A DNA stretch of 8,590 nt from DRGV01 sp018903055 [NCBI: bacterium] (GTDB taxonomy: Bacteria; UBP18; UBA7526), in the NCBI GenBank assembly GCA_018903055.1, contig JAHIPW010000021.1, forward strand, positions 1 to 8,590, given 5' to 3'. Shown one piece after another: positions 1 to 7,954 of the stretch. The notes beneath the pieces were generated by a model, which made no database searches, was not told the origin of the DNA, and saw nothing but the letters and a program-made list of their open reading frames with translations. Within the stretch, counting starts at the first letter, position 1. The number at the start of each line of letters is the position of its first letter. Made by a program: the position numbers and the translations under genes.

Positions 1-100
1 AAAGCTTGCCCCGTTTCTGTCTAGCGACAGATAACGGCGCGCTAAAGCTTGCCCCGTTTCTGTCTAGCGACAGATAACGGCGCGCTAAAGCTTGCCCCGT
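1..100. repeat. 43-bp tandem repeat with internal hairpin, 2.3 copies
   Basis: Two full 43-bp copies (1-43, 44-86) are identical, and a third (87-100) stops after 14 bases. The array probably continues upstream of the window. Each unit contains a stem-loop: CCGTT and CTGTC on the 5' arm (11-15, 17-21), a TAGC loop (22-25), then GACAG and AACGG (26-30, 33-37). The units abut without spacers, so this is not CRISPR. Function unknown; it could be an expanded dispersed hairpin element or a structured leader upstream of the response regulator. Confidence 0.9.
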
Positions 101-197
101 CTTTTACTTATTGAAGTTCCGATACCTTAAAATGAGTCTTCGTGGCTAGCGCCACTGGAAGCCTCTTTTGCTTATTGAAGTCCCGATACCTCAAAAT
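100..197. repeat. Direct repeat pair (27 bp, 64-bp period) around a hairpin
   Basis: Positions 107-133 and 171-197 are near-identical 27-mers beginning CTTATTGAAGT and differing at two positions; similarity extends left into TCTTTT. Between them lies a hairpin, GTGGC-TAGC-GCCAC (143-156), flanked by CTTC and GAAG. It has the same TAGC loop as the 43-bp units just upstream. The first 16 bases recur exactly at 6616-6631. The second copy ends immediately before the ribosome binding site of the response regulator, so it lies in that gene's 5' leader. Confidence 0.85.
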
Positions 198-1522: not shown

Positions 1523-1915
1523 GGGGGCGAAAAGGTTTCGACAGGGATATTTGATCTAAAAGGAGCATGCCGGCCTCGTCAGGTCGCCGTCCCTAACGGG
1601 ATCCTGAAGTCCCAACTTTGTTGGGGCTGAAGGGTAAAATACCTGGCAAAAACTTAATTGCCAACGAGCAGTTAGCTTACGCCTGCTAAAGAGCAGGCGC
1701 GCTCCTCCCATCTTGTCTGTGGAATGGGATGTGGGCGTCAGAGACACAGGATAGTCTCCCCTTCTCGTTTGAGGGATAGGAGATGAAAATTCATCAAACT
1801 GGTTCCGATCAATCCCACTAACAGGAGTGATCGGGATGAGAAAAAAATGTTGGCTAAGCATGTAGGGCCTTTAGAAAGATGTTCTTGGACACGGGTTCGA
1901 TTCCCGTCGCCTCCA
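1523..1915 (+). ncRNA. ssrA: Transfer-messenger RNA (tmRNA), one-piece
   Basis: This is the RNA that rescues stalled ribosomes by acting first as alanyl-tRNA and then as a short mRNA encoding a degradation tag. The 5' end GGGGGCG (1523-1529), followed by AAAAGGTTTCGACAGGGAT, is highly characteristic and pairs with CGCCTCC (1908-1914). The T arm is ACGGG-TTCGATT-CCCGT (1891-1907). The tag frame at 1660-1689 reads ANEQLAYAC and ends in a hairpin (GCCTGCT/AGCAGGC). Downstream hairpins at about 1700-1850 fit the pseudoknot region. After discriminator A1915 the genome reads CGC, so CCA is not encoded, unlike the four tRNAs here. No permutation into two pieces is seen. It lies 122 bp after smpB. 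Confidence 0.97.
1660..1689 (+). other. tmRNA proteolysis-tag reading frame
   Basis: From the likely resume codon GCC at 1660 the frame reads ANEQLAYAC and stops at TAA 1687-1689. The ANE start is typical of bacterial tags, but the C-terminus is YAC rather than the usual LAA or similar small hydrophobic end. The resume position is inferred from the usual GCN-AAN start and the position before the stop-codon hairpin. The frame is open upstream (GKNLI), so the exact resume codon is not proven. Confidence 0.75.
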
Positions 1916-1941
1916 CGCTATAATATATTTCTTGAATAATC

Positions 1942-4204: not shown

Positions 4205-4216
4205 CGTACTTAGTTG

Positions 4217-4290
4217 ATGCGTTTATGCGTTTATGCGTTTATGCGTTGATGAGTTGATGCATTTCGCATTCCGCTTAACGCATTCCGCTT
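4217..4290. repeat. 8-bp tandem repeat and duplicated 12-mer
   Basis: Six consecutive 8-mers of the form ATGCGTTT occupy 4217-4264; three are exact and the last three have substitutions. CGCATTCCGCTT then occurs twice (4265-4276, 4279-4290). AACGCAT in the second part is the reverse complement of ATGCGTT in the first, so the two parts can pair. The block fills the gap between the GerMN gene and murI. Confidence 0.85.
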
Positions 4291-6414: not shown

Positions 6415-6615
6415 ACCACGGATTCCATTCACCCCGCACCTTACAAGGTGCGGGGCAGGGATTCTCACAAGATTCTAAAAATCTTCTTTAAATTTTACCA
6501 CTGAACTCACTGAAGACACAGAAAAAATAATAAGCTCTTAATTCAGTGCTTTCAGTGTTCTCAGTGGTTAATTATCTTAAAGAATTCTTGTGTTAATCTG
6601 TGTAATCTTGTGGTT
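6415..6615. repeat. Nested degenerate inverted repeats downstream of rdgB
   Basis: ACCACTGAACTCACTGAA (from 6497, to 6523) is matched in reverse complement by 6542-6568 (ending TCAGTGGT) with several mismatches. Outside it, AACCACGGATT (6414-6424) is opposed by AATCTGTG and CTTGTGGTT (to 6615). This gap of about 270 bases before tRNA-Pro shows no gene, only such repeats. Confidence 0.75.
6432..6455 (+). terminator. Strong hairpin after rdgB, possible end of the operon
   Basis: CCCCGCACCT (6432-6441) and AGGTGCGGGG (6446-6455) form a perfect 10-bp stem with a TACA loop, 20 bases after the rdgB stop. No T tract follows, so intrinsic termination is uncertain. Its CCGCACC core resembles the elements flanking tRNA-Leu, so it may instead be a member of a dispersed palindromic repeat. 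Confidence 0.5.
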
Positions 6616-6631
6616 CTTATTGAAGTTCCGA
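6616..6631. repeat. Third copy of the CTTATTGAAGTTCCGA dispersed repeat
   Basis: Sixteen bases identical to 107-122 and one mismatch from 171-186. As at 107-143, it is followed some bases later by AAATGA and then CGTGGC, suggesting a longer shared element of about 40 bp ending in a hairpin or tRNA-like sequence. Confidence 0.8.
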
Positions 6632-6644
6632 AGCTGTGAAATGA

Positions 6645-6688: not shown

Positions 6689-6766
6689 CGGGGACTGGCG
6701 CAATTTGGTAAGCGCGCCTGGTTTGGGACCAGGAGGTTCGCGGTTCAAATCCGCGGTCCCCGACCA
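6689..6766 (+). tRNA. tRNA-Pro, anticodon TGG
   Basis: A 78-nt tRNA. The acceptor stem CGGGGAC (6689-6695) pairs with GTCCCCG (6756-6762), followed by A6763 and encoded CCA (6764-6766). The anticodon stem CCTGG/CCAGG (6717-6721, 6729-6733) encloses TTTGGGA with anticodon TGG at 6724-6726. The T arm is CGCGG-TTCAAAT-CCGCG. A tyrosine-recombinase fragment begins within about 20 bases of its 3' end, so this tRNA may once have served as an integration site. Confidence 0.97.
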
Positions 6767-6771
6767 TACGA

Positions 6772-6882
6772 AACTTTGCGAATTTCTGGCGGAAAAAGGC
6801 AGGCATTACTAAACATGTGACTGTTCACACCTTGCGCCATAGTTTTGCTACTCATCTTTTAGACGGATTAAAAGCCCTTTAG
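6772..6882 (+). pseudogene. Tyrosine recombinase (XerC/IntI-like) fragment, box II only
   Basis: The frame reads WRKKAGITK and then [16 protein letters not shown] before a stop at 6880-6882. This is the box II region of tyrosine recombinases; the HxLRH motif (codons at 6826-6840) supplies a catalytic His and Arg. There is no start codon, no N-terminal domain, no upstream active-site Arg/Lys, and no C-terminal Tyr. In the same frame after the stop, VGHKRST (around 6937-6957) could be a degraded box III, but the spacing is wrong. The fragment begins directly after tRNA-Pro. XerC/D-like, phage and integron integrases share this motif, so the subclass is not decided by the fragment alone. Confidence 0.75.
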
Positions 6883-7046
6883 ATTTTGGCAGCAGATGAA
6901 AATAGCAAAAAGTTACAATTTGAGGTTTCACCTAGAGTTGGGCATAAACGAAGTACTTCGCAAAACATGCCATTTTGGGAGCATAGACGAACTATTTCGG
7001 TTATTTTAAGTTATCGTAAATTGTGGGCATTAATAAGCGTGAAGAT

Positions 7047-7649
7047 ATGAAAAATATAGGAATCGGTCCTCTTTGTTTGTTGCTTATATTCTGCTTATTG
7101 GTTTTTGCTTTACTGGCCTATGCCTTTGATTCCGAATTGTGGCCAGGGGAAGGTAGGCCAGTGTTTCGGTCAAAAACTGATCACTTGGTTTTATACAAAC
7201 AGCCTTCAAAGACATCAGGCATCGTTGATAAATTCAAAATAAATAAAGGGGAGGTTATAATTTTTGACCAAACACGATATCGAAATATAAAGGCAGGAAA
7301 AATCAAAGTGCTAAAATTAAGCATCTTACAAGGAAGGAGCTTAGGCAATATTACATATCTTTCTGTTGAAAAGTATTATCATTCAGGTATCCCTTCAAAA
7401 GATTTTTTATTTAACAGAGGAGACATTTTTGACTATCTTCAAGATAGGGCTGAAGGAAGTGGTATAATCAGATGGAAGGGTGAAATTATTGATTTAGAAT
7501 ACTGTCCATGGTTTGACCGCGAAAACAGAAATTTTAATGTCATGTCAGAGCCAATCAATGAGTGGTGGATAAGAGTTATTAAAAATCAAAAACCTGTTGG
7601 CTGGCTTTTAGTTGATGAAAATATAGTGGAAAAAGACCGTACATTTTGA
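7047..7649 (+). CDS. Secreted protein of unknown function, SH3-like C-terminus
   Basis: I do not recognise this protein. From ATG 7047 it has 200 residues: an N-terminal signal peptide (MKNIGIG, a long hydrophobic run of L, I, F and V, then AYA with likely cleavage after A26), and so an exported mature part of about 174 residues. The C-terminal end, NEWWIRVIKN then PVGWLLVDENIVEK (W173, W174, G185, W186), resembles a bacterial SH3 repeat, where W..V...G..GW is common. The middle is rich in aromatic and charged residues with no obvious catalytic motif. A GTG at 7023 would add eight residues (MGINKRED) but overlap the unit's terminal repeat; ATG 7047 gives a cleaner signal peptide. Base composition is more AT-rich than the core genes, suggesting acquisition. 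It is the only gene in the cassette-like unit. Confidence 0.7.
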   Translation: MKNIGIGPLCLLLIFCLLVFALLAYAFDSELWPGEGRPVFRSKTDHLVLYKQPSKTSGIVDKFKINKGEVIIFDQTRYRNIKAGKIKVLKLSILQGRSLGNITYLSVEKYYHSGIPSKDFLFNRGDIFDYLQDRAEGSGIIRWKGEIIDLEYCPWFDRENRNFNVMSEPINEWWIRVIKNQKPVGWLLVDENIVEKDRTF

Positions 7650-7678
7650 TACAAAGGAAGGAAAGATTTTATTTTGAA

Positions 7679-7775
7679 AATGCCCACAACTTCCGATAAT
7701 ATGATGTAAAAGACTTCATTTCACTTTGTCTAAATCCGCCTTTGACGGACTTCTTTTACATCAGGAACGTTAGGC
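7679..7775 (+). other. attC-like recombination site (imperfect palindrome)
   Basis: The outer arms are AACTTCC (7688-7694) and GGAACGTT (7764-7771), which pair with one extra C. The inner arms GATGTAAAAGA (7703-7713) and TCTTTTACATC (7752-7762) are a perfect 11-bp match. A small TCCG/CGGA hairpin (7735-7738, 7746-7749) sits in the centre. The site ends in GTTAGGC, an exact match to the attC core GTTRRRY, and begins with GCCCACAAC in place of RYYYAAC. Extrahelical bases and an asymmetric unpaired stretch (gataatat opposite one A) are compatible with attC but more irregular than usual. It could alternatively be a terminator-like palindrome, though no T tract follows. Confidence 0.5.
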
Positions 7776-7876
7776 GAAATACGAATTTATGGAAGAGCAG
7801 TCTTTAAAACCAGCTTAAAATTGATGGGCAAAATTTGACCAAAAAAGAAACAGACAGAGAAAATGTGAGTGACAAG
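7776..7876. other. Gap between attC-like site and tRNA-Arg; possible truncated second cassette
   Basis: An ATG at 7789, 18 bases after the GTTAGGC core, opens a frame of only nine codons (MEEQSLKPA, stop 7816-7818). This is what the start of a further cassette cut short would look like, but it is far too short to call a gene. Nothing else is seen up to the tRNA. Confidence 0.35.
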
Positions 7877-7954
7877 GCGCCTGTAGCTCAGTCTGGATAG
7901 AGCATCGGATTTCTAATCCGACGGTCGCAGGTTCGAATCCTGCCGGGCGCGCCA
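7877..7954 (+). tRNA. tRNA-Arg, anticodon TCT
   Basis: A 78-nt tRNA. The acceptor stem GCGCCTG (7877-7883) pairs with CGGGCGC (7944-7950) with one G-T pair, followed by G7951 and encoded CCA (7952-7954). The anticodon stem TCGGA/TCCGA (7905-7909, 7917-7921) encloses TTTCTAA with anticodon TCT at 7912-7914, reading AGA. The D arm GCTC/GAGC and T arm GCAGG-TTCGAAT-CCTGC are regular. It is followed closely by tRNA-His, probably on one transcript. Confidence 0.97.

What the first reader, a model, noticed from the sequence alone, without database searches (positions are those of the whole stretch)
7021..7769. Ends of the AT-rich unit are exact complements in the way an integron cassette requires
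TTGTGGGCATT at 7021-7031 is the reverse complement of AATGCCCACAA at 7679-7689. If G7769 is joined to T7021, as in a circular cassette, the match becomes 12 bp (GTTGTGGGCATT against AATGCCCACAAC) and completes the attC-like palindrome. A chance repeat or ordinary transposon would not place the left partner at the unit start and the right partner about 80 bases inside the end. One gene with a 26-base leader lies between. The non-standard core may mean a divergent integron type or a degraded one.
Basis: partly seen in the sequence, partly recalled or inferred. Interest (0 to 1): 0.75.

Follow-up and report, generated by a model that had tools for sequence, protein, structure and literature searches.

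The report
Gene inserted beside proline tRNA gene
A small AT-rich gene sits in a spot beside a proline tRNA gene where related bacteria carry other genes or none; its mirror-image ends are real, but tests do not bear out that it is an ordinary integron gene cassette.

Summary
The inverted repeat is real: 7021-7031 against 7679-7689 is exact, 12 bp if G7769 is joined to T7021, and part of a longer 19/21 repeat (7011-7031/7679-7699) that 0 of 200 shuffles matched. The reading as an integron cassette with ends at 7021 and 7769 is only partly borne out. An attC covariance model built here does not find the proposed site and finds none in this genome at E<=1. No genome of the six held from this phylum has an integron integrase over cut-off. 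The repeat runs straight through 7021: 8 of the next 10 bases pair, against 0-4 of 10 in 30 control cassettes. The left arm overlaps a decayed copy of a repeat dispersed in the lineage. The unit's last 21 bases and the 54 beyond 7769 recur together in G003 and, more weakly, G004. What is shown: the tRNA-Pro/tRNA-Arg gap is empty in two relatives and holds a methyltransferase gene in a third; other tRNA-Pro genes also have variable cargo, often with the same flanking modules. I read it as a tRNA-Pro cargo hotspot, possibly with relics of integron-like sites.

The parts
6689..6766 (+). tRNA-Pro(UGG), left border of the variable gap
   Evidence: ARAGORN; 0 and 1 base from tRNA-Arg(UCU) in G003 and G004
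6790..6864 (+). 25-codon fragment of a tyrosine recombinase (box [15 protein letters not shown])
   Evidence: TIGR02249 positions 250-274, 32.7 bits; as a 35-aa peptide integron integrase 37.2, XerD 35.6, XerA 34.1 bits; family not decidable
6938..6975 (+). 5' palindromic module containing ATAAACGAAGTACTTCG
   Evidence: found with <=3 mismatches in 5 of 7 tRNA-Pro loci with cargo and 0 of 8 without; 79% match over 6921-7007 at G000:C183; its fold is not more stable than shuffles (z -0.66, 55 of 200)
7000..7022 (+). decayed copy of the lineage's dispersed repeat GTTATTTTAAGGTATCGGAACTT...
   Evidence: 20/23 identical; 200 shuffles of 6767-7876 reach at most 17; other copies
   Evidence: 19/21 complementary to 7679-7699
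7047..7649 (+). cargo ORF, 200 aa from the in-frame ATG, N-terminal helix, no known family
   Evidence: no Pfam match at E<=1, best NCBIfam E 0.39, no PDB match at E<=1; weak PHROG 90 match E 0.007; model mean pLDDT 41, only the N-terminal helix confident
7679..7699 (+). right arm of the inverted repeat
7694..7700 (+). CGATAAT, the place corresponding to an inner attC core in the aligned relatives
   Evidence: alignment of four loci
7702..7763 (+). palindrome: 12-bp arms 7702-7713 and 7752-7763
   Evidence: 7690-7775 folded as DNA: minus strand z -3.2 (1 of 200 shuffles as stable), plus strand z -2.3 (5 of 200)
7749..7823 (+). 3' block shared with other loci; crosses the proposed unit end at 7769
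   Evidence: 79% at G003:C36; the G003 copy matches G004:C4 at 75%; alignment
7877..7954 (+). tRNA-Arg(UCU), right border of the variable gap
   Evidence: ARAGORN

Best explanation
The stretch 6767-7876 is a cargo insertion in a hotspot directly downstream of tRNA-Pro genes in this lineage. A single AT-rich gene lies between flanking modules that recur at other loci: a 5' palindromic module with pieces of a dispersed repeat, and a 3' palindrome with a conserved tail. Relatives carry other genes or none at the same kind of place. Shown: presence and absence, cargo turnover, and recurrent flanks. Inferred: cargo is exchanged by recombination between the shared flanks or by a recombinase acting in trans, since no integron integrase was found. 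The 3' palindrome may be a decayed integron-type site that my attC model no longer recognises.
For: Empty gap in G003 and G004, methyltransferase in G002, 200-aa ORF here. tRNA-Pro(GGG) locus: GIY-YIG, DUF2334 deacetylase and GNAT genes in G000, methyltransferase in G003, an ORF cut by the contig end in G001, a 175-aa ORF in G005, no ORF of 80 aa or more in G002 and G004; tRNA-Pro(CGG): 145-aa ORF in G004:C4, no ORF of 80 aa or more in G000, G002, G003 and G004:C33. 5' module in 5 of 7 loci with cargo and 0 of 8 without (Fisher p 0.007). 3' block at three tRNA-Pro loci. No attC-model site in G000, no IntI over cut-off in 0 of 6 genomes exceeded, repeat runs through 7021, dispersed-repeat match at 7000-7022.
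Against: No mobilising enzyme is identified. Neither tRNA end is repeated in the insert (longest shared word 8 bases), so no integration footprint is seen. The 5' module does not fold better than shuffles. The motif G-TTA-NNN-GAA(A/G)T stands at 6 cargo edges of 9 occurrences in 216 kb of partly overlapping loci, which looks like a shared cassette core, although I chose the motif after seeing those loci. An attC-like right half (CGTTAGGC) does end the palindrome. G003 and G004 could have lost the insert. With few bases in empty loci, the 5-of-7 against 0-of-8 count is partly built in.
Confidence: 0.52

Rival explanations
1. A relic integron cassette (single attC without integrase) with ends G7010|T7011 and G7769|T7770. 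Inner core CGATAAT pairs with its own start TTATCG; it was inserted by an integrase that is gone or acted elsewhere.
For: G|TT at both ends; the start GTTATCGTAAAT resembles GTTANNNGAAAT at other cargo edges; the inner-core place aligns with CGATAAC in G001:C3 and AACTAAC in G004:C4; the inverted repeat begins exactly at 7011; 6 of 7 core bases pair.
Against: Complementarity continues at 12 of the next 14 bases, against at most 7 of 14 in 31 control cassettes. Dispersed-repeat identity crosses 7010|7011 (9/12 after it). No attC-model hit at the site. The 3' block continues past 7769. The own-end rule is weak in other loci (5/7 in G004:C4 and G001:C3, my reading).
Confidence: 0.28
2. One reading: a cassette with ends at 7021 and 7769 and core GTTGTGGGCATT/AATGCCCACAAC.
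For: 12 exact pairs, then chance level, much like control cassettes, whose longest exact run from the start is 10.
Against: 8 of 10 bases outside the boundary also pair, controls 0-4 of 10; A at 7020; core departs from GTTRRRY/RYYYAAC; left arm overlaps a dispersed-repeat copy; no attC-model hit at the site.
Confidence: 0.07
3. Homing-type turnover: GIY-YIG genes at tRNA-Pro break the site, and repair brings in neighbouring genes.
For: A GIY-YIG gene follows tRNA-Pro(GGG) in G000:C183, and the match to the window's 5' module begins at its stop codon.
Against: I saw no GIY-YIG gene at the other loci with cargo (their main ORFs; G001 and G005 ORFs not searched against a library); no cleavage site known.
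Confidence: 0.08
4. The insert is a remnant of a tyrosine-recombinase or IS91-type element integrated at tRNA-Pro.
Against: The fragment is 25 codons and was seen in G000 only; local scores are 95 for two IS91-linked sequences and up to 100 for IntI; neither tRNA end is repeated.
Confidence: 0.05

Closest known systems
tRNA-linked genomic insertion hotspots (recalled)
   Same: Variable cargo directly downstream of tRNA genes, empty in relatives
   Different: Mostly single genes; no integrase gene, no repeat of the tRNA end; shared flanking modules at three tRNA-Pro genes
Integron gene cassettes without integrase (CALIN; single attC)
   Same: Single gene followed by a palindrome ending CGTTAGGC; own-end complementarity
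   Different: No attC-model hit, inner core and left boundary base off, conserved tail beyond the end, no integrase over cut-off in the lineage
GIY-YIG genes next to tRNA genes (recalled)
   Same: One of the same hotspots carries a GIY-YIG gene with the same 5' module
   Different: The window's insert has none

Membership tests
Integron cassette / attC site | Match to an attC covariance model | tested here: not met
   R1, 29 sites: here only a different pairing (7728-7775) at 5.4 bits, E 9.6; 0 sites at E<=1 in G000. R1 has limited breadth: sites in 10 of 12 IntI+ genomes, 4 of the 6 not used in training. IntegronFinder and HattCI themselves were not available
Integron cassette / attC site | R' = GTTRRRY with crossover G|TT at the right end | tested here: met
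   G7769|TTAGGC; consensus as printed in PMC12901181
Integron cassette / attC site | R'' = RYYYAAC, and G|TT at the left end | tested here: not met
   CCACAAC or CGATAAT; A7020 precedes T7021; G7010|T7011 would meet G|TT but not the R'' consensus
Integron cassette / attC site | Inner core complementary to the cassette's own start, and no further outside | tested here: inconclusive
   Start 7021: 12 of 12 inside, but 8 of 10 outside, controls 0-4 of 10. Start 7011: 6 of 7, then 12 of 14, controls at most 7 of 14
Integron cassette / attC site | Two box pairs with short spacers and extrahelical bases | tested here: inconclusive
   Stem folds, but between core and stem there are 11 nt (CCACAAC) or 1 nt (CGATAAT) on the left against 5 on the right
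Integron | IntI with its additional domain | tested here: not met
   0 of 6 genomes over cut-off; Xer-like genes (two in G000, G003, G004, G005, one in G001 and G002) plus the window fragment. Five of the six genomes are under 90% complete
Integron | Array of two or more attC sites | tested here: not met
   0 sites in the window's genome at E<=1
tRNA-linked insertion hotspot | Gap empty in some relatives, different cargo in others | tested here: met
Tyrosine-integrase island at a tRNA | Integrase gene and direct repeat of the tRNA 3' end | tested here: not met
   25-codon fragment only; longest word shared with the tRNA-Pro 3' 40 bases is 8, inverted
Integron cassette | Excision or insertion by IntI | not testable with these tools
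   needs a recombination assay

The most novel reading that the evidence does not exclude
This lineage has an integron-like single-gene cassette system of its own: divergent attC-like palindromes with core G|TTANNNGAAAT, insertion sites beside tRNA-Pro genes with a 5' module acting like attI, and a recombinase that is not IntI (possibly a resident Xer protein) or acts in trans.
Probability: 0.1. Interest if true: 0.75.

Novelty: new variant of a known kind. Interest (0 to 1): 0.36.

Why it matters
It documents gene turnover beside three tRNA-Pro genes in a poorly sampled small-genome lineage, with shared flanking modules that may mark a capture mechanism. It also shows how an inverted repeat with cassette-like geometry can mislead: controls from real arrays (complementarity inside and outside the core) give a simple test for proposed lone cassettes.

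Tried and rejected
Cargo protein relatives: none in genome contigs, plasmids or viral contigs. Motif scans of viral contigs gave one match inside a phage contig's genes and five matches whose surroundings I read as coding chance matches. The attC-like right-half pattern in 52 genomes hit only G000 and G003. Structure prediction was too poor to use. No further copy of the 21-nt arm with 4 or fewer mismatches in 299 kb of lineage loci, partly overlapping (not whole genomes). The recombinase fragment cannot be assigned. R1 does not find the other 3' blocks either. My own box-pair score gave the candidate 7.5-7.7, below several other places in the window, up to 10.0. I first took 7010|7011 as a junction shared with G001, G002 and G003; the dispersed-repeat match across it weakened this.

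Rows dropped or doubtful. Control cassettes: 25 of the 31 pairs come from one Marinobacter array with many near-copies; the other six from two genomes; two pairs touch a partial model hit and are out of register (kept in the 31; that site was left out). Occupancy leaves out G005:C50 (masked stretch), G005:C72 CGG (a 156-aa ORF close by, but another neighbour gene) and the G001 TGG and CGG loci (not found); the two CGG contigs of G004 are counted apart. One search took 48 of the 80 loci, whose list was itself capped. One search took 28 of the 54 handles, and in large genomes scored only 150 candidates. Corrections found on checking: my notes give 13/14 and 7693-7699; the calls show 12/14 and 7694-7700.

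Full report
Observation. The two 11-base arms are exact at the stated coordinates. They belong to a 21-base inverted repeat, 7011-7031/7679-7699, with 19 pairs. None of 200 dinucleotide shuffles of 6767-7876 reached 19/21; the best was 18. Joining G7769 to T7021 gives the 12-bp stem and closes over a palindrome.

Where it lies. The window is one contig (C186) of a 1.09-Mb draft genome, 85% complete, in a phylum with six genomes held. The gene order is rph, rdgB, tRNA-Pro(UGG), the AT-rich stretch, tRNA-Arg(UCU), tRNA-His (protein names by my reading). In G003 and G004 the Pro and Arg tRNA genes stand 0 and 1 base apart; in G002 the gap holds a methyltransferase gene. So 6767-7876 is an insertion relative to two relatives (or was lost in them), and the content differs in a third.

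The hotspot. The other tRNA-Pro genes look alike. GGG locus: GIY-YIG, deacetylase and GNAT genes in G000; methyltransferase in G003; an ORF cut by the contig end in G001 and a 175-aa ORF in G005 (not searched further); no ORF of 80 aa or more in G002 and G004. CGG locus: a 145-aa ORF in G004:C4; none of 80 aa or more in G000, G002, G003 and G004:C33. That makes 7 loci with cargo and 8 without. A 5' module, ATAAACGAAGTACTTCG with up to 3 mismatches, is in 5 of the 7 and 0 of the 8 (Fisher p 0.007). Elsewhere in the 216 kb scanned there was one weak match (L193). As a hairpin it is no more stable than shuffles (z -0.66). A 3' block (window 7749-7823) recurs at G003:C36 (79%); the G003 copy matches G004:C4 (75%) and an 18-base piece at G001:C3. 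At G001:C3 it sits behind a 122-aa ORF next to an FtsK-like gene, not at a tRNA (name by my reading).

Is it an integron cassette? I tested this with controls. Of 48 genomes reached through rph relatives, 12 had an integron integrase over cut-off and one more a weaker match. From arrays in six of them I took 29 attC sites and built model R1. R1 gives 46 matches at E<=1 in nine array loci, training sites included and one site counted twice. In the window, with filters off, it gives nothing for the proposed site: 8 matches at E<=10, the best 9.9 bits inside the tmRNA gene, and 5.4 bits for a different pairing at 7728-7775. Over 28 whole genomes it finds sites in 10 of 12 IntI+ genomes, including 4 of the 6 not used for training; in the lineage one at E 0.97 in G003 and none in the other five; and in 2 of 10 genomes without an IntI match. 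IntI is over cut-off in 0 of 6 lineage genomes; lower-scoring matches are Xer-like genes and the window's 25-codon fragment.

Boundaries. In 31 consecutive control cassettes the inner core is fully complementary to the cassette's own start in 23; agreement per position is 0.81-0.97 in the core and 0.06-0.48 from position 10 on. These controls come from three genomes, 25 of them from one array. The window with a start at 7021 gives 12 pairs and then chance, which looks right. But in 30 controls the 10 bases outside the boundary pair at 0-4 positions, and here at 8. With a start at 7011 the 7-base core has 6 pairs, but 12 of the next 14 also pair, against at most 7 in controls. Neither boundary behaves like the controls. 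Bases 7000-7022 match the dispersed repeat GTTATTTTAAGGTATCGGAACTT at 20/23, against at most 17 in 200 shuffles, and this match crosses both candidate boundaries. The repeat was found at 15 places in fetched loci with up to 8 errors, 14 of them with up to 5, two of these in this window. On the right, the block shared with G003 and G004 continues 54 bases past 7769 in the G003 match, where a cassette should end.

What remains cassette-like. The right junction CGTTAGGC is canonical. The motif GTTANNNGAA(A/G)T occurs 9 times in 216 kb, 6 of them at cargo edges, but I defined it from those loci. The alignment of four 3' blocks places the inner core at CGATAAT, CGATAAC and AACTAAC in three of them. 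A decayed integron-type site is therefore possible, and R1 may be too narrow: published taxon-specific attC models had a mean sensitivity of 66.1% (PMC8352920, passages seen).

The recombinase fragment scores 37.2 bits for integron integrase and 35.6 for XerD, and aligns about as well to sequences near IS91-type transposases (score 95) as to IntI (up to 100). It carries no weight for an integron.

Literature. IntegronFinder 2.0 reports clusters of attC sites without integrase (CALIN) from two sites up and leaves single sites to the user (PMC9024848, passages). attG insertion of cassettes into genomes is mentioned in passages of PMC12901181; the original paper, Loot et al. 2024, was seen only as a citation. 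PMC9668308 was seen in passages; PMC11023631 gave only reference-list passages. I made five searches, none aimed at tRNA-Pro hotspots, so I make no claim about what is in print on those.

Verdict. The repeat is real and the unit is part of a variable, cargo-bearing spot beside tRNA-Pro. The specific claim of an integron cassette joined at 7021 and 7769 fails several tests. Integron ancestry of the 3' palindrome stays open.

Noticed in passing
window 107-136 and about 6609-6642; L165, L167-L170, L172, L173 and others: A repeat, GTTATTTTAAGGTATCGGAACTTCAATAAG, is dispersed in the lineage, often next to GC-rich palindromic spacers.
   Followed up: partly
L006 2740-3132 (G000:C183): A GIY-YIG gene follows tRNA-Pro(GGG), and a module like the window's 6921-7007 starts at its stop codon.
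   Followed up: partly
window 1523-1916: The tmRNA tag is read as ANEQLAYAC, against ANEQLAFAPA in G001; the ending is unusual and may be a misread or a real change.
   Followed up: no
window 1-100: Two exact 43-base tandem copies and the first 14 bases of a third, at the contig edge.
   Followed up: no
window 4213-4260: Short tandem repeat with an 8-base unit, such as GTTTATGC, between genes.
   Followed up: no
G024:C42:47609-48262: Two neighbouring attC-model hits (E 0.053 and 0.036) in a genome without an IntI match at E<=1e-70, the genome of L068, titled Candidatus Omnitrophota: a possible cluster without integrase.
   Followed up: no
G004:C4 and G004:C33: Two tRNA-Pro(CGG) contigs with a similar downstream gene, one with cargo and one without: strain mixture in the draft genome or a duplication.
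   Followed up: no
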